NCBI RefSeq assembly: GCF_000020585.3 | Contig: NC_011138.3 | Coordinates: 4,258,207-4,310,147, forward strand | From: Alteromonas mediterranea DE | Lineage (GTDB): Bacteria; Pseudomonadota; Gammaproteobacteria; Enterobacterales; Alteromonadaceae | Direction of reading: 5' to 3' | Length of the DNA: 51,941 bases | Part shown: positions 7,882 to 20,642 of the stretch, piece by piece | How positions within the stretch are numbered: the stretch's first letter is position 1 | Layout of the letters: the number at the start of each line of letters is the position of its first letter | Position numbers and translations under genes: made by a program | The notes under the pieces: generated by a model | The model's database searches: none | What the model was told of the DNA's origin: nothing | The model's input: only the letters and a program-made list of their open reading frames with translations

Positions 7882-8423
7882 ACGCTTCTCCTCACATTCC
7901 GGCTATCTGAGAATGACACCCTTTAAACACGACTAAGCCATTTTATTCACTTATGCCTAGCATTCCCTAGCGAAATTAAAAGCAGTTCAGTCAGTGTCTG
8001 CTTTTATTTCACCTTAAATAGCACCGCTTGTTTCGCTTATTTTTCAAGCTAGAGCAACGCAAAGCTACGCTATAAGGGCATACACCACTAGTATCTTTTA
8101 CTTACGAGTCATAACTAATATTTATATAAAAATGGCATACAGAAGATAAATGAGGCTAACAATCATACATTCACCTTATGAATATTATTTTATTTGTGCA
8201 TAATTTAAGCAACCGTAAAGGTAAGAAGTGTCTGTCTCCGGTTAAAAAACAACGCCACGTGAGTACCTTTAATTTATTAATTTAAAAAAATGTTAAATAA
8301 ATTTGGGGGGATTTTACATATTGCGTCGTCTTGATGAATTAACAGCGACATGCTGCGAAATAAAGCCTTGTGGGGTGCACACCACAAAGCACACTAAAAT
8401 TAACCATTAGGACACACACCATC
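7882..8423. other. long intergenic region between divergent pntAA and the first TonB receptor
   Basis: This 540-bp AT-rich stretch has no convincing gene. It must hold the promoters of both divergent units. The receptor side includes a G6 run at about 8305-8310 followed by ATTTTACAT. I see no clear operator palindrome. Confidence 0.6.
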
Positions 8424-11330
8424 ATGTATAGGAAAACCAAGCTTGCATGCTCAATGGCAGCAGTTTTAGCGTCTGCTATTTCTGCTAATAGTGCATTTGC
8501 CCAAAACGCGCAACCCAATAACGACGTAGAAGTGATTGAGGTAAGTGGTATCCGTTCATCGGTTGCAAAATCAATGGATGTTAAACGCAGCTCTGCCGGC
8601 GTAGTTGATGCCATAAGTGCCGAAGATATCGGTGACTTCCCTGATACCAACTTAGCTGAATCACTACAGCGTATTACCGGCGTCTCTATCGACCGTTCAG
8701 GCGGTGAAGGTCAGCTAATTACCGTGCGTGGCTTTGGCCCCCAATTTAATACGGTATTGGTGAATGGCCGTCAAATGGCGTCAGAAAACGACTCTCGCGC
8801 TTTTAGCTTCGACACGATTGCTTCTGAGTTAGTAAGTAGCCTTGATGTGCATAAAACGTCAACGGCCACAATGCAGTCTGGTGGTGTAGGCTCTACTATA
8901 AATATTAATACCGCACGCCCATTTGCGTTAAACGGTTTTAAAATGGCGGGTTCTGTAAAAGGCGTGTACGACGAAAATAGCGAAGAAACCACGCCTCAAT
9001 TCTCTGGCCTTATCAGCAATACTTTTAACGATGATACCTTCGGTGTATTGCTTGCCGTCTCACACCAAGAACGTGAAACTCGCTTAAATCAGGCACAAAT
9101 GGACGGCTGGTTAGAAAACGTCGGCGTACCAAACCCCGTTACACAGTCAGGCGAAGCTTGGACAGGCAATGTATTTTCACCGCGCAACTACGATCACAAA
9201 GTCACCTTTGAAGAGCGCACCCGTACTAACGCCAACTTAGTATTCCAATACGCCCCTAACGATAAGCTTGTGGTTACAGCAGATGCCCTGTATTCCGATT
9301 TTGACGTAGAGTCAGAAGCGACGTCATACGGCCATTGGTTTACCGCACCTAACATTCAAGGGGTGGGTGATGACGGTAGCTTATTTGACGAAAACGGCAA
9401 TCGCCGCAGTCCGACAGTTGATGCAAACGGCACCATTATCGACTTGTATCAAGAGGTGGGTTTGGCGACAGATATGCACGCCAAAACGTTCGATCGTTTA
9501 ACTGATACTTATGCCATCGGTCTGAACTTTGATTATCAGTACTCAGATAACTTAAACCTATCGTTCGATTTAAGTCATTCAGAAGCCGAACGCGAAGCCA
9601 ATAACGGTGGCGGCGATCAGCTATCACTTATTGGCTATGCCAACCGCGTACGCTTCCAAGTCGACGACAATATCCTGCCTGTTGCTAGCATGTTTGCCTC
9701 GCCAGATGCCAATATTTATAGCGGTCAACAGGAGTTAGATGGCGCTATTGTTACAGGTCCTGACGGCTTCCCTGCCTACAACGGTGCACTAACCCCCGAT
9801 GGCGTAAGCAATCACCTTGATGAAGCTAACAGCCGTGCCCACGTAATGCTGCGCCGCGGATGGGCAGTAGAAGACGAAGTGAGCCAACTGCGATTTGACG
9901 GTGAGTACGTAACCGACGGCAGCGGCTTAACCGAAATTCGCTTTGGTGCACAATACAGCACCGAAACCAAATCACTTACGCGTTGGGACAATGAAGGTGT
10001 AGGCATACACTGTACTTACTGTGGTTATCCAGATTTACCGGAAATACCAGCAGGTAGCCAATACGTTTTTGACGCGGGTAGCGACTTCCTTTCTGACGTA
10101 AGCGGAAGCGGCCGTATGCCAACCTCTTGGCTTGCCCATGATGGCGAAGCCAACTTTGCGTTTTTAGAATCTTACTACCAAAGCGTAAACGGCGAAGCTA
10201 TTAGTTTTGATGCGGTACGCCGTAATAATAGCTTTGAAGTAGAAGAAGATATTATCTCAACGTACCTTGAGTTCGATTTCGAAGGTGAAGTAGCCGACAT
10301 GTTCTTAAGCGCAACTGCAGGCGTGCGCTATGAATCAACCGACGTCACGGTTAACGGAACGCAAGCCCCAATAACAGGCTTAACTATTCTAGATCAAACC
10401 GAAATGCTCGCGGGCTTTGGTGATGCCCAAAGCATTGCCACTGAGTCTGATTACGATGTTTTGTTGCCAAACTTCAGCGTACGTTTAGAAATTACCGACG
10501 ATTTAATTGCGCGCTTTGCGGCAAGTTCAACCATTACCCGCCCCACGCTAAACAGCATGTCGCCGGTAACGGTAATTACGACTACCCGTCAAGGTGGCGA
10601 CTTAACCTCAACCAGTGGTAATCCTGCGCTAGAGCCGTTTAAGTCAGATAACTTAGACTTGTCGCTTGAGTATTACTACGACGAAGCAAGCTATGCGTCA
10701 ATTGGTTACTTCAGAAAGCTCGTATCAAACTTTATTGTTAATAGCCAAGAAGACAAAACCTTCGAGCTTGCTGACGGCAGTCTGCTAACAGACCCGTCTA
10801 CAGGAGCGAACGCAAGCGCACCAGATGCGGGTGACGACGTGGCGGTGTTTACCAATACGCTACCCAATAACGGTGAAGACGCCACGGTAGATGGCTTCGA
10901 ACTTGCGCTTCAACACACCTTTGATAACGGCTTTGGTGTACTGGCTAACGGTACCATTGTTGACAGTGACGCCGAGCTAGACCCGTTCGATATTAACCAA
11001 GTATTTGCGCTAACCGGTTTAAGTGATTCTTACAACTTGGTGGCATTTTATGAAACTGACGACTATCAAATTCGTCTTGCCTATAACTGGCGTGACAAGT
11101 TTGTTCAGTCGTTGACACAAGGGCAGGGTGACGGCCCAACCATTGTTGAGTCTTATCAACAGCTTGACATTAGCGGTAGCTACAGCGTGACAGACAATGT
11201 AGAAATTTTCTTTGAAGGTATTAACCTTACAGAAGAATTTGTGCATAAACGCGGTCGCTTCTCTAATCACTTGCTGTTGGTTGAAGACAGCGGCAGACGT
11301 TGGGCCTTCGGTGTGCGCGGAAACTTTTAG
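8424..11330 (+). CDS. TonB-dependent outer-membrane receptor (no STN domain)
   Basis: The 968-residue protein starts with a signal peptide ending at NSAFAQ. A TonB-box-like VEVIEVSG follows, then a plug (LAESLQRITGVSIDRSGGEG, RGFGPQFNTVLVNGR) and a long beta-barrel ending in the aromatic F typical of barrels. It should import a substrate across the outer membrane using TonB energy. The ATG at 8424, preceded by AGGA, is preferred over an upstream GTG at 8370. The barrel carries an HCTYCGYPD motif (C530, C533) shared with the second receptor at 14653-17877. The substrate is unknown; neighbouring genes suggest a carbohydrate or aromatic compound rather than classical iron uptake, which is inference. 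Confidence 0.95.
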   Translation: MYRKTKLACSMAAVLASAISANSAFAQNAQPNNDVEVIEVSGIRSSVAKSMDVKRSSAGVVDAISAEDIGDFPDTNLAESLQRITGVSIDRSGGEGQLITVRGFGPQFNTVLVNGRQMASENDSRAFSFDTIASELVSSLDVHKTSTATMQSGGVGSTININTARPFALNGFKMAGSVKGVYDENSEETTPQFSGLISNTFNDDTFGVLLAVSHQERETRLNQAQMDGWLENVGVPNPVTQSGEAWTGNVFSPRNYDHKVTFEERTRTNANLVFQYAPNDKLVVTADALYSDFDVESEATSYGHWFTAPNIQGVGDDGSLFDENGNRRSPTVDANGTIIDLYQEVGLATDMHAKTFDRLTDTYAIGLNFDYQYSDNLNLSFDLSHSEAEREANNGGGDQLSLIGYANRVRFQVDDNILPVASMFASPDANIYSGQQELDGAIVTGPDGFPAYNGALTPDGVSNHLDEANSRAHVMLRRGWAVEDEVSQLRFDGEYVTDGSGLTEIRFGAQYSTETKSLTRWDNEGVGIHCTYCGYPDLPEIPAGSQYVFDAGSDFLSDVSGSGRMPTSWLAHDGEANFAFLESYYQSVNGEAISFDAVRRNNSFEVEEDIISTYLEFDFEGEVADMFLSATAGVRYESTDVTVNGTQAPITGLTILDQTEMLAGFGDAQSIATESDYDVLLPNFSVRLEITDDLIARFAASSTITRPTLNSMSPVTVITTTRQGGDLTSTSGNPALEPFKSDNLDLSLEYYYDEASYASIGYFRKLVSNFIVNSQEDKTFELADGSLLTDPSTGANASAPDAGDDVAVFTNTLPNNGEDATVDGFELALQHTFDNGFGVLANGTIVDSDAELDPFDINQVFALTGLSDSYNLVAFYETDDYQIRLAYNWRDKFVQSLTQGQGDGPTIVESYQQLDISGSYSVTDNVEIFFEGINLTEEFVHKRGRFSNHLLLVEDSGRRWAFGVRGNF

Positions 11331-11341
11331 TTTCGCGTAAT

Positions 11342-11365
11342 TGGGGCCGGCATTTGTTGGCCCCA
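11342..11365 (+). other. GC-rich hairpin after the receptor stop
   Basis: TGGGGCC and GGCCCCA form a perfect 7-bp stem with a 10-nt loop, 11 bp after the receptor stop and just before a stronger terminator hairpin. It may protect the receptor mRNA 3' end or aid termination. Confidence 0.5.
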
Positions 11366-11370
11366 CATTC

Positions 11371-11399
11371 GTGGCTACCCTTTGGTAGCCACAGTTTTT
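11371..11399 (+). terminator. rho-independent terminator/attenuator between receptor and halogenase gene
   Basis: GTGGCTACC and GGTAGCCAC form a perfect 9-bp stem with a CTTT loop, followed by AGTTTTT. It sits 16 bp before the halogenase start codon and should uncouple receptor levels from the downstream genes, with read-through or an internal promoter feeding them. Confidence 0.8.
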
Positions 11400-11414
11400 A
11401 TTCAGGAACACAGT

Positions 11415-12983
11415 ATGACAACAGCAACTCCCATAACGCACATTGTAGTAGTCGGTGGCGGCAGCGCAGGGTGGCTTACGGCTGGTCGTATTGCAGCGCA
11501 GCATCAGTGCGCTACCCGCAAAGACATTAAAGTAACCTTAGTAGAAAGCCCCAATGTGCCTATTATTGGCGTGGGTGAAGGCACTTGGCCTACCATGCGC
11601 TCAACACTAATTGCATTGGGTATTAGCGAAACTACATTCATCAAAGAGTGTGACGCCACATTCAAGCAAGGCGCAAAGTTCGCTAAATGGACTACCGGTG
11701 AAGAGAGCGATTTTTACTACCACCCTCTTATGCTGCCCCAAGGGTTTTCGCAAACTAATTTAGGCCCTTACTGGCAGACGGTAGCACCAGAATTAAACGA
11801 ATCTTTTTCCCATGCAGTGTGTGTACAAGAAGCTATATGTGAAGCAGGCTGCGCACCTAAAAGCATACGCCACGCAGAGTTTGCAGGCACCGCAAACTAT
11901 GCTTATCACTTAGATGCAGGAAAGTTTACCGCCTTTTTAACCAAACACTGCACTGAAAAACTAGGTGTACACCATGTGCTGGCCGATGTTAACCACGTCG
12001 AAAGCTTTGATAACGGCGATATTAAAGCCCTTCATACCGAGCAAGGGGTAATAGTAGAGGGCGACCTTTATGTTGACTGTACCGGCTTCAAATCTATGCT
12101 GCTTGGCGAACACTACAAGGTGCCGTTTATTCCCTGCGACGATGTACTTTTTATCGACCGCGCGTTGGCAGTACACGTACCTTACGACACGCCACAAAGT
12201 CCTATTGCCTCACACACTATTTCCACCGCACAAGACGCCGGTTGGATTTGGGATATTGGTTTGCAGTCGCGCCGTGGCGTAGGTCACGTTTATTCCAGCA
12301 GGCACCAAAATAAAGATGAAGCCTATGCTCGCCTAGACACTTACGTTCGCCAAACCAGTTCTTTAAATGGTATAGACGATATAAACGTAAAAGATATCAC
12401 CATTCAAAGTGGACACAGACAGCGCTTTTGGCAGAACAACTGCGTAGCCGTTGGCCTAGCGGCGGGTTTTTTAGAGCCTTTAGAAGCCTCTGCCTTAGTA
12501 CTGGTTGAACTGTCTGCCTCAATGATTGCCGAACAATTGCCTGCAAATCGCGCTGTGATGGCTATTGTGGCGAAGCGATTCAACGATACTTTTTCGTACC
12601 GTTGGCAGCGAATTATCGACTTTTTAAAACTGCACTACATGTTAAGCAAGCGAGAAGACAGTGCATTTTGGCGAGACAATCGCGATAGTCACACCATTCC
12701 GGACTCATTAAAAGAATTACTGGCGTTGTGGCAATACCACCCGCCCAGTGACAAAGACTTCACCAGCAATAATGAGGTATTTCCCGCGGCAAGCTATCAG
12801 TATGTGCTGTACGGTATGGGCTTTACCTCTCAACTAGGTACGCATCAGCAATGGGTGAACGCCGACTTTGCCAAGCAACAGTTGATGCAGAACAGGAAAG
12901 CACGCAGCATGGCGGTGGAGAAACTGCCTAAGCATCGCGAGCTTATCAATAAAATTCACCAATTCGGCCTGCAGGCCGTTTAA
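11415..12983 (+). CDS. flavin-dependent tryptophan-halogenase family protein
   Basis: The 522-residue protein has an N-terminal FAD-binding motif (VVVGGGSAGW, residues 11-20). The IGVGEGTWPT motif is at 51-60 and a lysine pair K84/K88 lies in ATFKQGAKFAKW, where family members keep the catalytic lysine. GFLEPLEAS at 351-359 is the site of the family's catalytic glutamate. The signature usually written WxWxIP reads WIWDIG at 277-282, lacking the proline. Known enzymes form HOX from reduced FAD, oxygen and halide; the substrate here is unknown, and a partner flavin reductase is not in this cluster. The ATG at 11415 has AGGA upstream; an in-frame upstream start would lie inside the terminator. 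It leads a three-gene set with sapC and the DUF6445 gene. Confidence 0.9.
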   Translation: MTTATPITHIVVVGGGSAGWLTAGRIAAQHQCATRKDIKVTLVESPNVPIIGVGEGTWPTMRSTLIALGISETTFIKECDATFKQGAKFAKWTTGEESDFYYHPLMLPQGFSQTNLGPYWQTVAPELNESFSHAVCVQEAICEAGCAPKSIRHAEFAGTANYAYHLDAGKFTAFLTKHCTEKLGVHHVLADVNHVESFDNGDIKALHTEQGVIVEGDLYVDCTGFKSMLLGEHYKVPFIPCDDVLFIDRALAVHVPYDTPQSPIASHTISTAQDAGWIWDIGLQSRRGVGHVYSSRHQNKDEAYARLDTYVRQTSSLNGIDDINVKDITIQSGHRQRFWQNNCVAVGLAAGFLEPLEASALVLVELSASMIAEQLPANRAVMAIVAKRFNDTFSYRWQRIIDFLKLHYMLSKREDSAFWRDNRDSHTIPDSLKELLALWQYHPPSDKDFTSNNEVFPAASYQYVLYGMGFTSQLGTHQQWVNADFAKQQLMQNRKARSMAVEKLPKHRELINKIHQFGLQAV

Positions 12984-13010
12984 CAGTAAAACAATAAAAA
13001 GGACTGGCGT

Positions 13011-13754
13011 ATGACAAACATGGTTGCCATTAACAACAAGCTGCATGCAGGCCTTAAAGTGACCGACGACGCATTATCCCTAGGGGCCAATCAGCACCTT
13101 GTGCCGGTAGTGGTGTCAGAGCTTAGCAAACTTATCGTGCACTACCCCGTAGTCATTACCAAATTCGATGATTCTGGACAATTTGGCTTATCTGCCTTGC
13201 TAGGGTTTGAAGAAAAGGAAAACCTATTTTGGCAGCAAGGTGAATGGGATGCAGTTTATATTCCCGCGCAGTTTGAACGCTTGCCTTTTTATGCAGGAAC
13301 AGAAGCACAAGGCGCTGACAGCAGTGACCGGGTGCTGTGCATTGATATGGATAATGCCTCAGTAAGCGAAGAAAAAGGAACGCCGCTCTTTGATAACACA
13401 GGAGAGCCTAGCAGCTACCTGTTAGAGAAGCAGCAGATCCTTGCTCAGCTTCTTGACGGTGAAACGCAAAATCAGCGTTTTATTGCCGCGCTGCAACAGC
13501 ATAACCTTATTACACCATTCACTCTAGATATTACCTTTGAAAACGAAAGCAAAACGTCTATAACAGGGTTATATACCATTGACGAAGACAAGCTAGCCGC
13601 GCTTAGCGCTGACGCGATTGCCGATTTACATGCACGAAACATGTTGCAAAGCATTTACACGATGGTAGCGTCAAACGCACAAATCTATGCCCTTATCGAC
13701 AAAAAGAACAAGGCGAATAAAAACGCAGACGCATGGTTTCAAACTACGAATTAA
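13011..13754 (+). CDS. SapC family protein
   Basis: This 247-residue protein resembles the SapC family (PF07277), named after a Campylobacter S-layer locus, through LVPVVVSELSKLIVHYPVVI and GFEEKENLFWQQGEWDAVYIP. No signal peptide is visible, so it is probably cytoplasmic. The molecular function is not known. SapC-like genes recur beside TonB receptors and tryptophan-halogenase-like genes in Alteromonadales, Xanthomonas and Caulobacter relatives. It starts 27 bp after the halogenase stop behind AGGA and overlaps the next gene by 22 bp, so the three genes look like one operon. Confidence 0.85.
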   Translation: MTNMVAINNKLHAGLKVTDDALSLGANQHLVPVVVSELSKLIVHYPVVITKFDDSGQFGLSALLGFEEKENLFWQQGEWDAVYIPAQFERLPFYAGTEAQGADSSDRVLCIDMDNASVSEEKGTPLFDNTGEPSSYLLEKQQILAQLLDGETQNQRFIAALQQHNLITPFTLDITFENESKTSITGLYTIDEDKLAALSADAIADLHARNMLQSIYTMVASNAQIYALIDKKNKANKNADAWFQTTN

Positions 13755-14434
13755 TAAGGGTTGGCGAGAGCGCCACCCCCGTTGTTGTAATTGATGATTT
13801 TATCCCAGACCCGCATGGCTTGGTTGAGACCATAGCCAGTCATCATCAATTCATAAAACGAGAAGGCGATTTTTACCCTGGCGTGAGAAGTCACGCACCT
13901 GTGGGGTATGAAGCACACCTAAACACCTCGTTACCCGCACTTTTCAGCCAGCTTGTTTCGCATAATGATATGCAGGATGTTGGGGTAGAAAAGCCGCCAC
14001 AGATAGCGTTAGTACAACTCTCTATTGCTAATCAAGACCCAAAAACTCTATCGCCCATTCAATGTATTCCGCACATTGATACGCAAAAGGATAACGAGTG
14101 GGCATTGGTGCACTATCTTTTCAACGACCCCTTGGGCGGCACCGCATTTTACCGGCATATTGAAACCGGCTTAGAACGCGTTGATGCAGCCCAGTACGAA
14201 GGTTATTTCAAAACCTTAAAACGCCAGGCCACCACCGTCGGGCTGCCGCCTAAAGCCTATATCAATGGTGATTCCGCCATGTTTACTCAAATTGGCCGCA
14301 TTGCGCCTAAATACAATCGCGCCGTATTGTACCCCGCCAACCTGCTACATAGTGGGTGTTTACCCAACGATATTTCGGGCTCTATTGATGTAAAAAAAAG
14401 CAGATTAACCGCAAATGCCAGTGTTATTTTTTAA
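13733..14434 (+). CDS. DUF6445-like protein with 2-oxoglutarate/Fe(II) oxygenase-like residues
   Basis: The 233-residue protein looks like the DUF6445 family that accompanies halogenase/SapC genes. It has no signal peptide. IPHIDTQKD gives H114-x-D116, LLHSGC gives H206, and RLTANASVIF gives R224 near the C-terminus. This HxD...H...R order is that of 2-oxoglutarate/Fe(II) dioxygenases, so an oxygenase role is plausible but unproven. Translation is probably coupled to sapC, because the start lies 22 bp inside it and has no clear ribosome-binding site. The family name is from memory, not a search. Confidence 0.8.
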   Translation: MVSNYELIRVGESATPVVVIDDFIPDPHGLVETIASHHQFIKREGDFYPGVRSHAPVGYEAHLNTSLPALFSQLVSHNDMQDVGVEKPPQIALVQLSIANQDPKTLSPIQCIPHIDTQKDNEWALVHYLFNDPLGGTAFYRHIETGLERVDAAQYEGYFKTLKRQATTVGLPPKAYINGDSAMFTQIGRIAPKYNRAVLYPANLLHSGCLPNDISGSIDVKKSRLTANASVIF

Positions 14435-14463
14435 CCCTTACCGTCACTTATTTAAGGCCAAAG

Positions 14464-14492
14464 GCTGCTACTGAAGCCTTATTAGTAGCAGC
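14464..14492. other. hairpin downstream of the halogenase operon
   Basis: GCTGCTACT and AGTAGCAGC form a perfect 9-bp stem with an 11-nt loop, 30 bp after the DUF6445 stop. There is no T run, so termination is uncertain. A possible remnant of a lost gene overlaps it: an open stretch at 14475-14615 without a start codon, ending in KKGDRKQLWKEIEALEKA. Confidence 0.5.
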
Positions 14493-14652
14493 ATTCGCAT
14501 CAACCTTTGTCTGTTTGAACCTGTTAAACATGAAAGTTTGTTCACGAAAAAAGGTGATCGAAAGCAACTGTGGAAAGAAATAGAAGCGTTAGAAAAGGCT
14601 TCACTGAAAAGCTAAGACGCCAAGCACTGTTAGCGTCGCATGCAAGATACAC

Positions 14653-17600
14653 TCAGTAAGTAATGTTAACGCCTAACGCATAGCGGGCTCCAGCATCTTG
14701 CACTAGTAAAAGGTGGTTACTGAATCTGCCACGTTTATGCACGGTTTCGTTGGTAATATTTATGCCTTCAAAAAATACCGCGACCTTCGGGCTGAACTGG
14801 TATGAAAGGCTCATATCCCATTGCTCGTAAGGACTCACAAAGGTGGGCTCGGTGCTCTGCGTTTGATTAAGCGACTGTAAAAATCCCTCTCGCTGGTTCC
14901 AAGCCACACGCCACTGCAGCGCGTCCTTCTCGTAAAACAGCACCATATTTTTCGCGCCAGATAGCCCGGTAAGCGCAAAGGTTGAACGAATGTTGGCGGT
15001 GTCTAATTCAGCGTTGCTGTCTACAAAGCTCGCATTGGCCTGAATTCCCCACCCTGAGTCGCCAAACAAATGCTGCACTGCTATCTCGACCCCTTCGACC
15101 GTTGCTGACTCGCCATTGCTTGGAGATATTACGGAAAACTGCGCTAACGCATCGGCATCGTCAGCCGCGTTTGGATTTGTTCCGGTACTAGGGTCGGTCA
15201 CGTTATTAAAGGTTTGCGTACTGCTTTCATTAACAATGAAATTGTCTACCGTTTTTCTAAAGTAACCTGCCGATATATAGCTATTTTCTTGGTAGTAATG
15301 CTCCACAGCCACATCAATATTTTTTGCCTCAAATGGCAATAGCTGTGCGTTTCCGATACGCGCCCGCAAATCGCCACCTTGTCGCGTTGTGGTATAGGTT
15401 ACACCCGGCGCCATCTGCTCTAAGGTTGGACGGGTAATACTGTGATTGTAAGCCGCGCGAAATACCCAGCTATCTAACCAGCTGGCTTTAAAACTTACGC
15501 TAGGTAAAACATTGGTGTAGTTTGACGATTCATCAATACTTACCGAGGCGCCGAATTCTTGCCCCAGTTCGGTTTGGTCTAAAATAACTAACGCCGACAA
15601 CTGTTCGTCGACACCACTTACTTTTACGTCAGTATACTCAGCCCGTAGCCCTGCATGCACATCAATAAACCAAGGCGCAAAATCCTTTTCAATAGCGGCT
15701 TGAACATATCCCGCATACACGGTTTCCTTAACCGCGAAAGAACTCCCCCGGGTTTCAGCGGCTAAACTGACATCACCAGCGTTCTCCAAGTAACGAAATA
15801 ATGTATCGCCGTCGTGACGCAGCCACTGATGAGGTATGTTCTCATGCCCACTAATTGACCCAAGAAAATCGTCGCCTGCGTCAAATATGGTTTGAAAGCT
15901 ATCGGGAATATCTGGTGCATCAAAATAGCCACAAAAACTACAGTGTCTTGCGTCGGCTTCGTTGTCTCTTCTTTCGTTGGCTTTTTCTCGCTGAGTTAAT
16001 GCTCCGCCAACGTCAATTTTGCTAAACCAGTTATCGTCGCCAAGCACGCTTACATTGATTTTTGCTTGCCCTATATCGTCGTCAACACTCCATCCTCTGC
16101 GCAGCATCACATGAGAACGGCCGTTAGCTGGGTCTAAGTAATGGGATACCCCCACTGGCTCACCCAAAGCGTTAACTTGACGAGGGTTGGCTTGTTCAAA
16201 GCCCGATATAGCCGGCAATATATTTGACTGAGTATGGTCGAATGAAGAACGATTTAAGTAGCCGATAAGAGAGAGTGAATTGCCCTCTCCGTTGTTGTCA
16301 TCGACATTAGCCATTGAATAAGACAGATCAGCATCAACAATTACGCTATCGCTCGCGATATAGTTTGCTGCAAAACCGAAGCTTTTCAAGGTCGATGAAC
16401 GGTTAAATGTGCGCGCGTGAAAGTCGGTGGCGTGCCCACTGTTTTGTGAAAAAGCCACCGCCGTGCCGTTTTTATCAACCGTAACATCTTCAAGATTACT
16501 CGATGTAAACCAATGCCCCATTGAGGTTGCCGAGGTCTCCACATCGAATGTCGACCCCAGATAGTCGGCAGTAAGCTCTAGCTTGTTGTTAGGTCTATAC
16601 TGTAAAACGAGTGCAGACCCCGTACGGGTCCTATCGTCAAAACGCACTCTTTGATCGTAATTTCTGGGAACGTATAGCGTAGGAACGTCTTCAGAAAGCT
16701 CACTTTCAGGTACGTTAGTATTCACCAACCATCCATCGATTTGCGCTTCTTCTAACCGCGCTTGGCGCTTGTGCTGAGTAAAAGAGGCTAGAATACCAAA
16801 CGAGTTATTTAAGTAGGTGTTGCTGAACATGGCAGACGTTGAAGGCGCGTATTGTTGTGAGTTGGTATCGTACTGCATTTTGACGCTGCCAGCCGCCCGC
16901 ATTCCCTTGAAGGATAAAGGTTTAGCAGTTTGAACATCGATCGTAGCGCCAATGCCACCCGACTGCATGGTCGCCTGACTTTGTTTGTGTACGGTTACAC
17001 TGCTGACAATCTCAGAAGCCAGTGTATCAAAACTGAATTCGCGCCCGAGCTTATCGGTTGCCATAGGCCTGCCGTTTAATAAAACCCGATTAAATTCCGG
17101 CCCAAAGCCCCTCACCGTAACAAGTTGCCCTTCCCCTTCTGCGCGGTCGATAGATACGCCAGACACACGCTGCAGCGCTTCTGCGAGGTTCTGATCGGGG
17201 AACTTCCCCATATCCACCGACTGGATAGTATCAATGATGACATTCGCGTTGCGTTTAATCCCCACCGATTGAGCAACACGCGCTCGCAAGCCCCTTACTT
17301 CAATGTATTCAATGTCGTAACTACCTTGCTCATCCGGTACGGTCACCAAGCTATCGTCTTGTGCGGTAATGGCGTTAAACAGGCGACCTAGCAAGTGATT
17401 GTTTTCATCGCCATCGCTAGCAGGCACTATTTTTATGCGTGTGTTATCAACAATGTGAGCACTCAGACCCGTACCAGCTAAAAGCTTTTTAATTGCCTCC
17501 TGCGGCGTATAGTTACCACTTACTTCGTTGGCAAAGACGTGTCTGACTTTATTGAAGGGAAAGACAACGGTCAGCTCGGCTTGATTGGCAAACGCGATGA

Positions 17601-17877
17601 TTGCCTCGTCTGCACTTTGTGCAGGAATAGAGAAATCAATTGCGGAGAGCGGCGATGTATTCTGTGTAATCACTTCAGCTTGTTGGTGAGGCAGCACTGG
17701 CTGTGCAATAACAGTGTGACTTGCGCCGAACGACACCATACACAGCGCAACCGTTAAAGCCTTGGGCTTAAAAGGTAGCATGATTAATGAGTTGTTTGGG
17801 TTATTAGCCACAGGCATATTTGTTCTTACGCTATTGTTATTATGATTTTGGGGGAGTTTTTGACGCGCCTGCGTCAT
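14653..17877 (-). CDS. TonB-dependent receptor with N-terminal STN signalling domain
   Basis: The 1074-residue frame carries an STN (secretin/TonB short N-terminal) domain at about 80-150 (FSIPAQSADEAIIAFANQA), a TonB-box-like IEYIEVRG near 189, a plug and a barrel ending in Y. The STN domain marks a transducer that signals ligand occupancy to a FecR-type anti-sigma factor, and fecR and an ECF sigma gene lie divergently upstream. A signal peptide begins near M33 (MLPFKPKALTVALCMVSF) and ends at VIAQ, so the true start may be 17781; the ATG at 17877 has GAGAG upstream. It is a clear paralogue of the receptor at 8424-11330, sharing HCSFCGY (C646, C649), ITRPTL, TTTRQGGDL and GYFRK. Confidence 0.94.
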   Translation of the reverse strand: MTQARQKLPQNHNNNSVRTNMPVANNPNNSLIMLPFKPKALTVALCMVSFGASHTVIAQPVLPHQQAEVITQNTSPLSAIDFSIPAQSADEAIIAFANQAELTVVFPFNKVRHVFANEVSGNYTPQEAIKKLLAGTGLSAHIVDNTRIKIVPASDGDENNHLLGRLFNAITAQDDSLVTVPDEQGSYDIEYIEVRGLRARVAQSVGIKRNANVIIDTIQSVDMGKFPDQNLAEALQRVSGVSIDRAEGEGQLVTVRGFGPEFNRVLLNGRPMATDKLGREFSFDTLASEIVSSVTVHKQSQATMQSGGIGATIDVQTAKPLSFKGMRAAGSVKMQYDTNSQQYAPSTSAMFSNTYLNNSFGILASFTQHKRQARLEEAQIDGWLVNTNVPESELSEDVPTLYVPRNYDQRVRFDDRTRTGSALVLQYRPNNKLELTADYLGSTFDVETSATSMGHWFTSSNLEDVTVDKNGTAVAFSQNSGHATDFHARTFNRSSTLKSFGFAANYIASDSVIVDADLSYSMANVDDNNGEGNSLSLIGYLNRSSFDHTQSNILPAISGFEQANPRQVNALGEPVGVSHYLDPANGRSHVMLRRGWSVDDDIGQAKINVSVLGDDNWFSKIDVGGALTQREKANERRDNEADARHCSFCGYFDAPDIPDSFQTIFDAGDDFLGSISGHENIPHQWLRHDGDTLFRYLENAGDVSLAAETRGSSFAVKETVYAGYVQAAIEKDFAPWFIDVHAGLRAEYTDVKVSGVDEQLSALVILDQTELGQEFGASVSIDESSNYTNVLPSVSFKASWLDSWVFRAAYNHSITRPTLEQMAPGVTYTTTRQGGDLRARIGNAQLLPFEAKNIDVAVEHYYQENSYISAGYFRKTVDNFIVNESSTQTFNNVTDPSTGTNPNAADDADALAQFSVISPSNGESATVEGVEIAVQHLFGDSGWGIQANASFVDSNAELDTANIRSTFALTGLSGAKNMVLFYEKDALQWRVAWNQREGFLQSLNQTQSTEPTFVSPYEQWDMSLSYQFSPKVAVFFEGINITNETVHKRGRFSNHLLLVQDAGARYALGVNITY

Positions 17878-18029
17878 TCTACTCTCTGTTGAATGCTGTT
17901 GTTGTAAACCAGCGACGCATTATATACAACCTATTAACAAATTTAATTTTTTAGCGATAATGTCGAAAATACTGGGGGATAATAGTGTGGCTGTCGTCTT
18001 ATTAAGTAACAACGATAAAAAATAACAAT

Positions 18030-18620
18030 ATGCCCATAGAAACAGCCATACATAATGCCTATATGTCGGCGCGCGGCTCGATGGCCAAAATGCTATCGCG
18101 TCTTGTGCCGCCTAAAGAAGTCGACGACATACTGCAGGATACGTATGTTCGCTTGTGTCAGGCGAAATCTACTGAGCATATTAAAGAGCCCAAGTCGTTT
18201 TTGTTTAAAACCGCAAAAAACTTGGCCTACGATTATTTAAAGCGAGCTGACACGCGCATGGTCGACGACAGCGTAGAGGTTGCGGCAGCGTTGGAAAATG
18301 CAATTAGCGGTGTTGAAGATGAGACGTTTCACAACAACGCTACCCAGCAAGAGTTTAAGCTGTTTTGTGACGCAGTGCGCGCCCTACCCAAACAATGCAG
18401 GCGCGCATTTGTATTGAAAAAAGTGTATGGCTACTCTCTTAAAGAGATTGCCCAGGAATTAGAGATAAGCGAAAAAACCGTGGAAAAGCATATTGCTGAA
18501 GGGATAAAAAGATGCACCTTATTTATGCGACGACAAACAACGTCGTATACACGGCCGAACGCTTATCAAAATGGTGGGCAACACAGCTCGGCGGATGTAA
18601 AGAGAGACGCCCATGAATAG
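18030..18620 (+). CDS. ECF RNA polymerase sigma factor, FecI-like
   Basis: The 196-residue protein has a sigma region 2 (VDDILQDTYVRLCQA, FLFKTAKNLAYDYLKR) and region 4 (VRALPKQCRRAFVLKKVYGY, then LKEIAQELEISEKTVEKHI). It lacks regions 1 and 3, as ECF sigma factors do. It overlaps the following fecR-like gene by 8 bp, and a receptor with an STN domain is divergent 152 bp away. The likely role is to direct transcription of receptor and operon genes when the receptor binds its ligand. No strong ribosome-binding site is seen before the ATG. Confidence 0.93.
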   Translation: MPIETAIHNAYMSARGSMAKMLSRLVPPKEVDDILQDTYVRLCQAKSTEHIKEPKSFLFKTAKNLAYDYLKRADTRMVDDSVEVAAALENAISGVEDETFHNNATQQEFKLFCDAVRALPKQCRRAFVLKKVYGYSLKEIAQELEISEKTVEKHIAEGIKRCTLFMRRQTTSYTRPNAYQNGGQHSSADVKRDAHE

Positions 18621-19719
18621 TTCTAAAAACGAAACTAAAACCGACAAATCAGACACCCAAAGCAACGTTGTTCAATTTAACAGCGATGAACGTGTGCTTG
18701 ATGTTGCTAGCGAATGGCTTGTGAAGCTAGACGAGGGACTTGATAACGAGGAAATGCAAGCGCTAAAAACATGGCTTGCAACGCCATTGCATCGAGACAC
18801 TTTCCTAGAGATGGTAGCGTTATGGGACAAAATGTCTGTGCTTAGCGAATTGGCTGATATCGTACCTCATACTCCTGAGCCTAACGCCAAACACAAAACA
18901 AACAGCACCGTGGCTTGGAAGCGCCCGCTGGCCATTGCTGCCTCGATTTTAATGGTCGGGCTGTTAAGTTATCAGGGGCTAAATTTATTCTCGCCGTCTA
19001 ACCAAACCGAACCTGTTGCACAAATGGCAAGCTACTCGTTACAAGCTTCGACCAAACCGGGCGAGCACAAGAGTATTAGCTTAGAAGACGGCAGTACACT
19101 TTGGCTAAATACCAATTCACAAGTGAATATTGCCTTTACCGATACCTCGCGGATTATTCAGCTTGTTAAAGGTGAGCTTCATATCAACGTAGCAAAAGAC
19201 AAGTCTCGCCCGCTCAATGTACTTGCGGCAGGTAAAGCCATTCAAGCCGTTGGAACCGCATTTAACGTGCAGTATCATCGCGGCGACCTTGAGCTTGTAG
19301 TAACCGAAGGGGTAGTTGAAGTCGCCAGCTACACACTGAACAAAGCCAATGGCGAAAGCATTGTTAACCCTATTATTAAGCCGCAGGCACGTCCATTGAC
19401 GTTAGTTCAAGGTGAAAAATCGCTTTTATCTTTGCCTAACAGCACCGTTGAGACCGTGTCAGATAAAGATATCGCGAATGATTTAAGCTGGCGTGAAGGC
19501 AAGATTGTATTTCGCGGCGAGCCATTAATTGACGTGATTGAAGAAGTAAGCCGATATACGGATAAAACGGTTGTTTTAGGTGATGCTGCGCTTGCTAACA
19601 TGCAAGTAGCAGGGCTATTCAACACCAATGATGTAGACGCGCTTATTGCCGCCCTTGCCGACAATTTACAGATATCTACAGACTACTCTAGCGACACTAT
19701 TGTTCTTCGCCCCCGTTAA
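18613..19719 (+). CDS. FecR-family anti-sigma factor
   Basis: The 368-residue protein has an N-terminal cytoplasmic sigma-binding region of DUF4880 type (ASEWLVKLDEGLDNEE, about 33-75), one membrane helix at about 100-118 (LAIAASILMVGLLSYQG), and the periplasmic FecR domain (TKPGEHKSISLEDGSTLWLN and onward). It ends in an STN-like segment from about 290 (LSWREGKIVFRGEPL). It should hold the ECF sigma factor at the inner membrane and receive the signal from the STN domain of the divergent receptor. The 8-bp overlap with the sigma gene implies coupled translation. Confidence 0.93.
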   Translation: MNSSKNETKTDKSDTQSNVVQFNSDERVLDVASEWLVKLDEGLDNEEMQALKTWLATPLHRDTFLEMVALWDKMSVLSELADIVPHTPEPNAKHKTNSTVAWKRPLAIAASILMVGLLSYQGLNLFSPSNQTEPVAQMASYSLQASTKPGEHKSISLEDGSTLWLNTNSQVNIAFTDTSRIIQLVKGELHINVAKDKSRPLNVLAAGKAIQAVGTAFNVQYHRGDLELVVTEGVVEVASYTLNKANGESIVNPIIKPQARPLTLVQGEKSLLSLPNSTVETVSDKDIANDLSWREGKIVFRGEPLIDVIEEVSRYTDKTVVLGDAALANMQVAGLFNTNDVDALIAALADNLQISTDYSSDTIVLRPR

Positions 19720-19895: not shown

Positions 19896-20642
19896 ATGCA
19901 AATAGGCAGTACTTTAACGGCAATTAAGCAGCTCACTTCCAGGCTACTATTTCTGGCAACCTGCGTGGTGCTATCTAATACAGCTTTCGCCATTGAAGCT
20001 GGCCAATATTATTATTTCATTTCTGACAAGTGCGTGGCTAAAGGCCCTCAAACGCCCGAAGAGCGAGGCGCCGTAACCCCAGATGTTATGCTATTTGAAG
20101 TGGTACCTGCGGGGATCAGCGACTATTACGTAAACATGAATACGAGCGCACTGATTCACTATACAGAGGAAGGGCAAGCGCACCTTTCTTCAATGGAAGC
20201 AGAGCAGGCCTATACTGCTGGTAAAGCACCTTCGAAAGACAGCCCTAGAAAAGATGGCAATGCCATCCAGCACGACTTCATGCTGCAGCGCGAAGCAATA
20301 GATTTAAAAACCCTGATAAACACGTTAAATGGTTTTTCCCAGCTGCAGTCTGATAAAGGCTACTTTTTTAAGAAAATCGTAGGCCTTTCTAACCCCGACG
20401 CTAAATTTAAAGCCATTACCCGGGTTCGCTTAAGCGATATGGGTTACGACAATCGCATGATGCTAACAAGCTACTCCAGCGACTACTTTATGCTGGATGA
20501 ACAAGGTAAGGCCTCTGACACAGCTTTTATTACGGTAGATCACGGCGCAGCGCTACGCAATTCACTGCACGACACCAACAGCCCGTACGCCATATTTACC
20601 AAAAATTCAGTATGCGGTGAAAAGTGGGAGCCGGGCAATTAA
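19896..20642 (+). CDS. exported protein of unknown function
   Basis: I do not recognise this 248-residue protein. A signal peptide runs to about residue 32 (LLFLATCVVLSNTAFA), so the mature part should be periplasmic or secreted. Two mature cysteines, one near each end (SDKCVAKG and NSVCGEKW), could form a disulphide. No catalytic motif is evident. The ATG follows TAAGGCG at a good distance. The first 17 bp of the gene recur inverted at the 5' end of ppiC. It follows fecR but with a 176-bp gap and a possible terminator, so it is probably not part of that unit. Confidence 0.75.
   Translation: MQIGSTLTAIKQLTSRLLFLATCVVLSNTAFAIEAGQYYYFISDKCVAKGPQTPEERGAVTPDVMLFEVVPAGISDYYVNMNTSALIHYTEEGQAHLSSMEAEQAYTAGKAPSKDSPRKDGNAIQHDFMLQREAIDLKTLINTLNGFSQLQSDKGYFFKKIVGLSNPDAKFKAITRVRLSDMGYDNRMMLTSYSSDYFMLDEQGKASDTAFITVDHGAALRNSLHDTNSPYAIFTKNSVCGEKWEPGN

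What the first reader, a model, noticed from the sequence alone, without database searches (positions are those of the whole stretch)
8424..19719. Paired paralogous TonB receptors around a halogenase/SapC/DUF6445 operon and a FecI-FecR switch
Seen: receptor without STN, then halogenase-like, SapC and DUF6445 genes, facing a second receptor that is clearly homologous over plug and barrel but carries an STN signalling domain next to an ECF sigma and FecR pair. Known: STN receptors signal through FecR to FecI. Inferred: one receptor imports and the other senses the same ligand, switching on the receptor and the intracellular enzymes. Halogenase-like genes next to TonB receptors recur in several proteobacteria, yet their role is unsettled, so this could be an uptake-and-modification system for an undefined ligand.
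Basis: partly seen in the sequence, partly recalled or inferred. Interest (0 to 1): 0.75.

Follow-up and report, generated by a model that had tools for sequence, protein, structure and literature searches.

The report
Split sensor-transporter sugar uptake switch
A marine Alteromonas carries a nutrient-uptake switch in which the jobs of sensing and importing, apparently done by one outer-membrane receptor in related bacteria, seem to be divided between two receptors, with one regulator switching on the importer and three linked genes, two of them probable oxygen-using enzymes.

Summary
In detail: R1 (TonB receptor, no STN), halogenase (HAL), SapC and DUF6445 face R2 (homologous receptor with STN) and a FecI/FecR pair. 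Comparison supports one regulon. In relatives its matrix hits R1 in 16 of 16 two-receptor loci and R2 in 0 of 20. In other genera a single R1-like receptor with STN sits on HAL-SapC-DUF6445 beside FecI/FecR; the tree suggests R1 lost its STN while R2, a separate branch, kept it. In the genus R1 was found only with R2 (14 of 14), but R2 without R1 in 2 of 16; there the motif precedes SapC-DUF6445. A sugar porter recurs (24 of 57 loci, though only 4 of 16 two-receptor ones), with glucokinase, cellulase or amylase in a few, so a sugar ligand is likely. DUF6445 resembles 2-oxoglutarate/Fe(II) hydroxylases. What HAL, SapC and DUF6445 do stays open. Verdict: a split-transducer variant of known cell-surface signalling; wiring supported by sequence only, ligand and enzyme roles inferred.

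The parts
8306..8332 (+). ECF-type promoter motif (GGGGGAT-N12-GTCGTCTT), 118 bp from the motif's first base to the R1 start
8424..11330 (+). R1: TonB-dependent receptor without STN, signal peptide-like N terminus; proposed transporter
11415..12983 (+). HAL: flavin-dependent 'tryptophan halogenase' family protein (PF04820)
13011..13754 (+). SapC family protein (PF07277), no signal peptide-like N terminus by a simple hydrophobicity look
13733..14434 (+). DUF6445 (PF20043): probable 2OG-Fe(II) oxygenase; H114, D116, H206 and R224 invariant in 10 of 10 aligned
14616..14637 (-). terminator-like hairpin after the R2 gene (1 found in the region scanned, 0.3 expected in shuffles)
14653..17877 (-). 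R2: TonB-dependent receptor with STN signalling domain; likely start codon at 17817
17974..18000 (+). ECF-type promoter motif (GGGGGAT-N12-GTCGTCTT), 56 bp from the motif's first base to the sigma-factor start
18030..18620 (+). FecI-like ECF sigma factor (Sigma70_r2, Sigma70_r4_2)
18613..19719 (+). FecR-like anti-sigma factor/regulator (PF04773), hydrophobic segment near residue 105

Best explanation
This is a cell-surface signalling (FecI-FecR type) regulon in which sensor and transporter are separate proteins. R2, apparently outside the ECF regulon, binds an extracellular ligand, most likely a sugar or oligosaccharide. Through its STN domain it acts on FecR, which frees or activates the ECF sigma factor (standard CSS mechanism, inferred). 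The sigma factor transcribes its own sigma-fecR operon and R1-HAL-SapC-DUF6445 (inferred from shared, conserved promoter motifs). R1 then does the bulk of import. The ancestral form, still seen in other genera, is one receptor doing both jobs. Shown by sequence: gene content, motif sites, absence of STN in R1 although its nearest relatives have it, one-way dependence of R1 on R2. Inferred: ligand binding, signalling, import, and the sugar identity. Not explained: the reactions of HAL, SapC and DUF6445.
For: Motif: only 2 zero-mismatch sites in the complete 4.48-Mb genome, before R1 and the sigma gene; the 4 further hits at 2 mismatches are at noise level (6 hits in all against 19 for the reversed-pattern control). 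Genus scan with an exact pattern: 24 of 37 hits lie at this locus; 14 of 16 genomes with the system have a hit against 10 of 43 without. A matrix trained only on sigma-gene sites and tested on other genes: R1 16 of 16, R2 0 of 20, HAL 0 of 65, DUF6445 0 of 46, SapC 0 of 59 outside L031/L032. Where R1-HAL are missing (L031, L032) the motif stands before SapC-DUF6445 (scores 22.5 and 18.8; threshold 20.8). Tree of 91 receptors: the 17 R1 rows, none with STN, are sister to 18 rows all with STN (Rheinheimera, Colwellia, Thalassotalea, Pseudoalteromonas and others; support 99), with 4 STN rows of the Cellvibrio group next. Sugar: an MFS sugar porter (PF00083) in 24 of 57 loci clustered, directly after fecR on the same strand in 19 and after DUF6445 in 3; in L028 it has its own ECF motif. 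Also glucokinase (L118), GH5 cellulase (L090, L091, L121), amylase (L112), SSF symporter (L083). R2 keeps R1-group residues better than outgroup receptors do in the barrel (0.82 against 0.62) but not in the plug (0.77 against 0.82).
Against: No expression or binding data. R2 lacks R1 in 2 of 16 genomes of the genus and in L122; in Glaciecola L087 R2 adjoins only a remote receptor (34%) without the motif. A first, stricter matrix from Alteromonas sites alone, tested on 41 other loci, passed its 99% threshold at only 10 of 35 sigma genes and 3 of 39 R1-like receptors (1 of the 3 two-receptor loci among them; 0 of 5 R2). With the second matrix, sigma genes are the training class (35 of 42 above threshold; L031, L032, L089 and L102 clearly below, L029, L030 and L120 just below), and single STN receptors pass in 13 of 33 (6 more within 0.5 below; 14 not). 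The threshold was set on random windows of the same loci, which include real sites. The porter is in only 4 of 16 two-receptor relatives; the window's genome has none at the locus and only a 33% homologue elsewhere. R2 could also transport, and R1 could have another ligand.
Confidence: 0.75

Rival explanations
1. R2 is a full FecA-like sensor-transporter and R1 a second transporter of the same regulon (redundant or different affinity); there is no division of labour.
For: R2 has a complete plug and barrel with many invariant columns; in L031/L032 and L122 R2 stands without R1, so it may still import.
Against: R2 has no ECF site in any of 20 loci, unlike the single STN receptors of other genera, which carry it in at least 13 of 33; R1 changes far less than R2 (dN 0.011-0.121 against 0.070-0.364 over four relatives), as if R1 carried the main transport load.
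Confidence: 0.25
2. It is an iron or siderophore system, as most FecI-FecR-receptor sets are.
For: FecI/FecR/STN architecture is best known from iron uptake (PMC11637429 and PMC1790865, passages seen); in 4 relatives an iron-type cassette sits between DUF6445 and R2; the R2-sigma gap has a 14 of 19 Fur-consensus match, equal to the 99% point of the window background.
Against: Best Fur-box matches are 13 of 19 (R1) and 14 of 19 (R2-sigma gap), against 17 of 19 in the inserted cassette of the 4 relatives. Neighbours in relatives are a sugar porter, glucokinase and glycosidases.
Confidence: 0.08
3. The receptors import an aromatic or peptide ligand that HAL and DUF6445 halogenate and hydroxylate (uptake and modification).
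For: HAL is of family PF04820; the studied relatives BrvH and Xcc4156 act on indoles but not free tryptophan, and a peptide substrate has been suggested (PMC7336383, passages seen; structure compared with MibH in PMC5945002, passages seen); DUF6445 resembles 2OG-Fe(II) hydroxylases.
Against: The recurrent transporter and the telling catabolic neighbours found are for sugars; SapC-DUF6445 persist without HAL in L031/L032.
Confidence: 0.12
4. Two unrelated systems are merely neighbours: R1-HAL-SapC-DUF6445, and R2-FecI-FecR.
For: R1 and R2 lie in different, well separated branches of the tree; R2-FecI-FecR occurs without R1 in 2 of 16 genomes.
Against: Same promoter motif and spacing (12, or 13 in L029/L030) before R1 in 16 of 16 relatives and before most sigma genes (35 of 42, the training class); R1 was found only with R2 in 14 of 14 genomes.
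Confidence: 0.04

Closest known systems
E. coli FecA-FecR-FecI and Pseudomonas FoxA-FoxR-FoxI type cell-surface signalling
   Same: STN receptor, FecR-type regulator, ECF sigma factor, ECF promoter on the uptake operon
   Different: There the transducer is itself the transporter and its gene is among the targets (PMC11637429, passages seen); here the regulon's transporter (R1) has no STN and the STN receptor (R2) shows no ECF site. No clear Fur box.
PrhA-PrhR-PrhI of Ralstonia (as cited in PMC1790865, passage seen)
   Same: A transducer that apparently senses without needing transport
   Different: PrhA senses plant contact and controls hrp genes; the passage mentions no paired STN-less transporter
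Carbohydrate utilization (CUT) loci with TonB receptors in Xanthomonas and aquatic bacteria (PMC1790865, passages seen)
   Same: Large TonB receptors with carbohydrate genes beside them in several relatives here
   Different: ECF/FecR control; no glycosidase or sugar gene at the window locus
TonB receptor + halogenase-like + SapC clusters of other marine bacteria (seen here in L034-L036 and, without an STN receptor, in most of L136-L150)
   Same: Same enzyme types behind a receptor
   Different: No ECF motif before the receptor: 0 of 18 other STN-less receptors, none by pattern in L034-L036

Membership tests
Cell-surface signalling (FecI/FecR/transducer) system | outer-membrane TonB receptor with N-terminal STN signalling domain | tested here: met
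   R2: PF07660, 37.4 bits over cut-off 28.4
Cell-surface signalling (FecI/FecR/transducer) system | ECF sigma factor and FecR-type regulator encoded together | tested here: met
   overlapping genes
Cell-surface signalling (FecI/FecR/transducer) system | common ECF promoter on the target uptake operon | tested here: met
   sequence evidence only:
Cell-surface signalling (FecI/FecR/transducer) system | the transducer gene itself is in the ECF regulon | tested here: not met
   no motif before R2 in the window or in 20 relatives; sequence evidence only
Cell-surface signalling (FecI/FecR/transducer) system | signal passes from receptor through FecR to sigma | not testable with these tools
   needs mutants and reporters
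Fur-controlled iron uptake system | Fur box before sigma/regulator or receptor gene | tested here: inconclusive
   best 13 of 19 (R1) and 14 of 19 (R2-sigma gap, at the background's 99% point) against 17 of 19 in a control cassette
Flavin-dependent halogenase | PF04820 family and similarity to solved halogenases | tested here: met
   407 bits; 2pyx 571 bits, Thal 265 bits, 6frl 231 bits
Flavin-dependent halogenase | halogenating activity | not testable with these tools
   enzyme assay needed
2OG-Fe(II) oxygenase superfamily (DUF6445) | double-stranded beta-helix fold | tested here: met
2OG-Fe(II) oxygenase superfamily (DUF6445) | HxD...H iron triad and distal Arg | tested here: met
   H114, D116, H206, R224 invariant in 10 of 10 sequences; the motif itself is recalled, and its place in the model was not checked
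Carbohydrate utilization locus | glycan or sugar genes beside the TonB receptor | tested here: inconclusive
   porter in 24 relatives' loci, absent from the window locus

The most novel reading that the evidence does not exclude
HAL and DUF6445 are not metabolic enzymes for the ligand but modify a protein, possibly the receptor R1 or another envelope protein, by halogenation and hydroxylation, so that this common marine gene set is a receptor-maturation kit under ligand control. What the evidence does not exclude: DUF6445's best fold matches include protein hydroxylases (PHD2, OGFOD1), related halogenases do not accept free tryptophan (PMC7336383, passages), HAL is missing together with R1 in L031 and L032 while SapC-DUF6445 stay with R2, HAL accompanies R1-type receptors in 16 of 16 two-receptor and 30 of 34 single-receptor loci, and R1 is unusually constrained.
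Probability: 0.1. Interest if true: 0.85.

Novelty: new variant of a known kind. Interest (0 to 1): 0.52.

Why it matters
In cell-surface signalling as described in the paper I saw passages of (PMC11637429), one receptor both imports and signals. Here the two jobs appear to be divided, the importer having lost its signalling domain, and a comparable pairing (an STN-less R1-like receptor near an unrelated STN receptor) is seen in three other loci (L109, L140, L146). It also puts the poorly understood halogenase-SapC-DUF6445 set under a candidate inducible promoter, so that its role can be tested by simple induction and deletion experiments in a marine bacterium, and it ties the set to likely sugar uptake.

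Tried and rejected

Rows dropped or uneven: for the tree, loci that duplicate L019-L033 genomes or are fragments were left out (L078-L082, L084, L085, L088, L104, L110, L111, L114, L144), as were L034-L037 and second receptors of L087 and L139. In one search L087 is counted as two-receptor only because of a 34% receptor; I do not count it so. In one search L033 lacks the porter label because its coordinates were missing from my list; one search corrects this; one search tested 23 porters, L033 not among them. The genus searches scored only the best 7 or 14 candidates per genome. On the filing check I lowered the main confidence from 0.78 to 0.75 because the report had left out the weaker result, and raised the iron rival from 0.07 to 0.08 because 14 of 19 lies at the background's 99% point.
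Full report
What is there. The window is part of a complete 4.48-Mb single-contig genome. By R2 identity it is an Alteromonas or close to it: the best named matches include Alteromonas abrolhosensis (98%) and A. marina (96%). R1 has a signal peptide-like start and a plug and barrel but no STN; R2 has STN, plug and barrel. HAL, SapC and DUF6445 have no signal peptide-like N terminus by a simple hydrophobicity look, so they are probably cytoplasmic (inference).

Distribution in the genus. In 59 genomes of the genus, R2 orthologues (50-100% identity, FecR beside them) occur in 16 and R1 orthologues (80-100%) in 14, all within those 16. The regions of the 15 other genomes were fetched and read: 13 have R1-HAL-SapC-DUF6445 facing R2-sigma-FecR like the window, and G009 and G031 have R2, sigma, FecR, SapC and DUF6445 but neither R1 nor HAL. 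HAL-family genes as a whole are common: 59 of 59 genomes have matches at E 1e-60, 2 to 19 each, so co-occurrence of the family alone means little; it is the orthologue and its place that count.

Promoter. GGGGGAT-N12-GTCGTCTT stands at 8306-8332 before R1 and 17974-18000 before the sigma gene, with identical spacing. The own genome has no other zero-mismatch copy. In the window with up to 3 mismatches 6 matches were found against 1.17 expected, none of 100 shuffles reaching 6. Across the genus an exact pattern gave 37 hits, 24 of them at this locus; 14 of 16 genomes with the system and 10 of 43 without had a hit (Fisher p 1e-5; reversed-pattern control 5 hits in all). A matrix from Alteromonas sites alone, tried on 41 other loci, passed its 99% threshold at 10 of 35 sigma genes, 3 of 39 R1-like receptors, 0 of 5 R2, 0 of 22 porters, 0 of 41 HAL and 0 of 33 SapC; many of the sigma genes below threshold still showed a G-rich box and a TCGTC-like box at spacing 12. 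A second matrix made only from sigma-gene sites, chosen from those outputs, then applied to 350 bp before (and 100 bp into) other genes in 70 loci, gave R1 of two-receptor loci 16 of 16, R2 0 of 20, single STN receptors 13 of 33 (6 more just below threshold), HAL 0 of 65, DUF6445 0 of 46, SapC 0 of 59 plus L031 above and L032 below threshold, porters 1 of 23, sigma genes over 40% identity 35 of 42 (training class), distant sigma genes 0 of 8. So the site marks the first gene of the uptake unit, and stands before SapC-DUF6445 where R1-HAL are absent; in those two genomes the site before the sigma gene itself is weak (11.4 and 14.0).

Origin. A scan of named genomes with an R2 alignment gave 73 loci. 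In Rheinheimera, Colwellia, Thalassotalea, Pseudoalteromonas, Cellvibrio, Microbulbifer, Catenovulum and others there is one receptor with STN whose plug and barrel are nearest to R1 (58-73%; 42-46% to R2), mostly followed by HAL-SapC-DUF6445, with sigma-FecR beside it in most. In the tree of 91 receptors the 17 R1 rows, none with STN, are sister to 18 STN rows with support 99, inside a branch of 53 rows of which 32 have STN; the 21 R2 rows, all with STN, form their own branch with support 100. The root is a midpoint, the R1 rows' own branch has support 93, and starred branches force at least five changes of the STN label over the whole tree. The simplest reading is that R1 lost STN once R2 could signal. 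In L109, L140 and L146 an STN-less R1-like receptor stands near a different receptor with a weak STN match (E 1e-5 to 1e-4, below Pfam's cut-off) and distant FecI/FecR genes, which looks like another, independent split.

Ligand. The most recurrent extra neighbour is an MFS sugar porter, in 24 of 57 loci clustered; by class 16 of 34 single-receptor loci, 4 of 16 two-receptor loci, L122, and L109, L140 and L146. It follows fecR on the same strand in 19, follows DUF6445 in 3, is divergent in 1, and in L028 carries its own ECF motif. NCBIfam scores the L028 copy highest with XylE (below that model's cut-off) and over the cut-off of the sugar porter subfamily. Some loci have glucokinase (L118), GH5 cellulase with cellulose-binding modules (L090, L091, L121), alpha-amylase and aldo/keto reductase (L112), a sodium:solute symporter in the porter's place (L083), and GFO/IDH/MocA oxidoreductases (L099, L100, L113; by clustering also L095, L140). 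Most other neighbours scanned showed no plain link to sugars. A glucose-containing sugar is my guess; a sugar of some kind is moderately supported. In the barrel R2 keeps 82% of the residues conserved in R1 and single receptors, outgroup receptors 62%; in the plug 77% and 82%. At 30 columns that separate the R1 group from the outgroup, R2 sides with the R1 group at 15, the outgroup at 2, neither at 13. This fits a shared ligand but does not prove it.

Evolutionary rates. Against four relatives R1 has dN 0.011, 0.015, 0.049 and 0.121; R2 has 0.070, 0.147, 0.219 and 0.364; dS is saturated in several pairs. R1 is more conserved than pntA next door in the three comparisons made.

Iron. The R1 upstream region has a best Fur match of 13 of 19 and the R2-sigma gap 14 of 19 (the background's 99% point), while a cassette inserted in 4 relatives (ApbE-DUF2271, EF-hand, DUF4198, haem-type receptor, as scanned in L019) has a 17 of 19 match in each, which serves as a positive control. 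Iron control is unlikely but not excluded.

Judgement. As an observation it is real. As a mechanism it works like FecIRA signalling. As a member of that class it meets the tested parts except that the transducer shows no site of the regulon, so I call it a variant with a split transducer and transporter.

Noticed in passing
L019:7936-14007, L021, L025, L026 (between DUF6445 and R2): Inserted cassette of ApbE-DUF2271, EF-hand, DUF4198 and a haem-type TonB receptor with a Fur-like box (17 of 19), in 4 relatives but not in the window. Domains were scanned in L019 only.
   Followed up: partly
L031:7786-9898 and L032:3611-5753: Where R1 and HAL are missing, a Wzy_C (O-antigen ligase-like) gene and a 250-aa gene of no known family lie upstream of SapC-DUF6445.
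   Followed up: partly
L109:17427-20255, L140:3508-6327, L146:4824-7607: Different STN-type receptors near STN-less R1-like receptors and distant FecI/FecR genes: possible second, independent split of sensor and transporter.
   Followed up: partly
L038:6334-11170 (own genome C1:1336333-1341169): A second sigma-FecR-receptor set in the same genome. Hits of about 35-40% to the window's FecR in most genomes of the genus may be its counterparts; not checked.
   Followed up: no
L037:5897-18250 (own genome C1:2148897-2161250): The only other PF04820 match of the genome lies between two further TonB receptors, followed by a 1472-aa protein.
   Followed up: no
window 19896-20642: Secreted-looking 248-aa protein without Pfam match, found behind fecR in 9 of 15 fetched relatives.
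   Followed up: no
L079: A 5.6-kb contig labelled Thalassotalea MAG carries R2, sigma and FecR pieces 83-95% identical to the window's: probably a binning error or recent transfer.
   Followed up: no
L047, L057, L058, L072 and G040:C28: One 27-base motif instance is shared by five genomes without the system; in the two looked at (L047, L058) it lies 142 bp before a putA-like gene (by eye).
   Followed up: no
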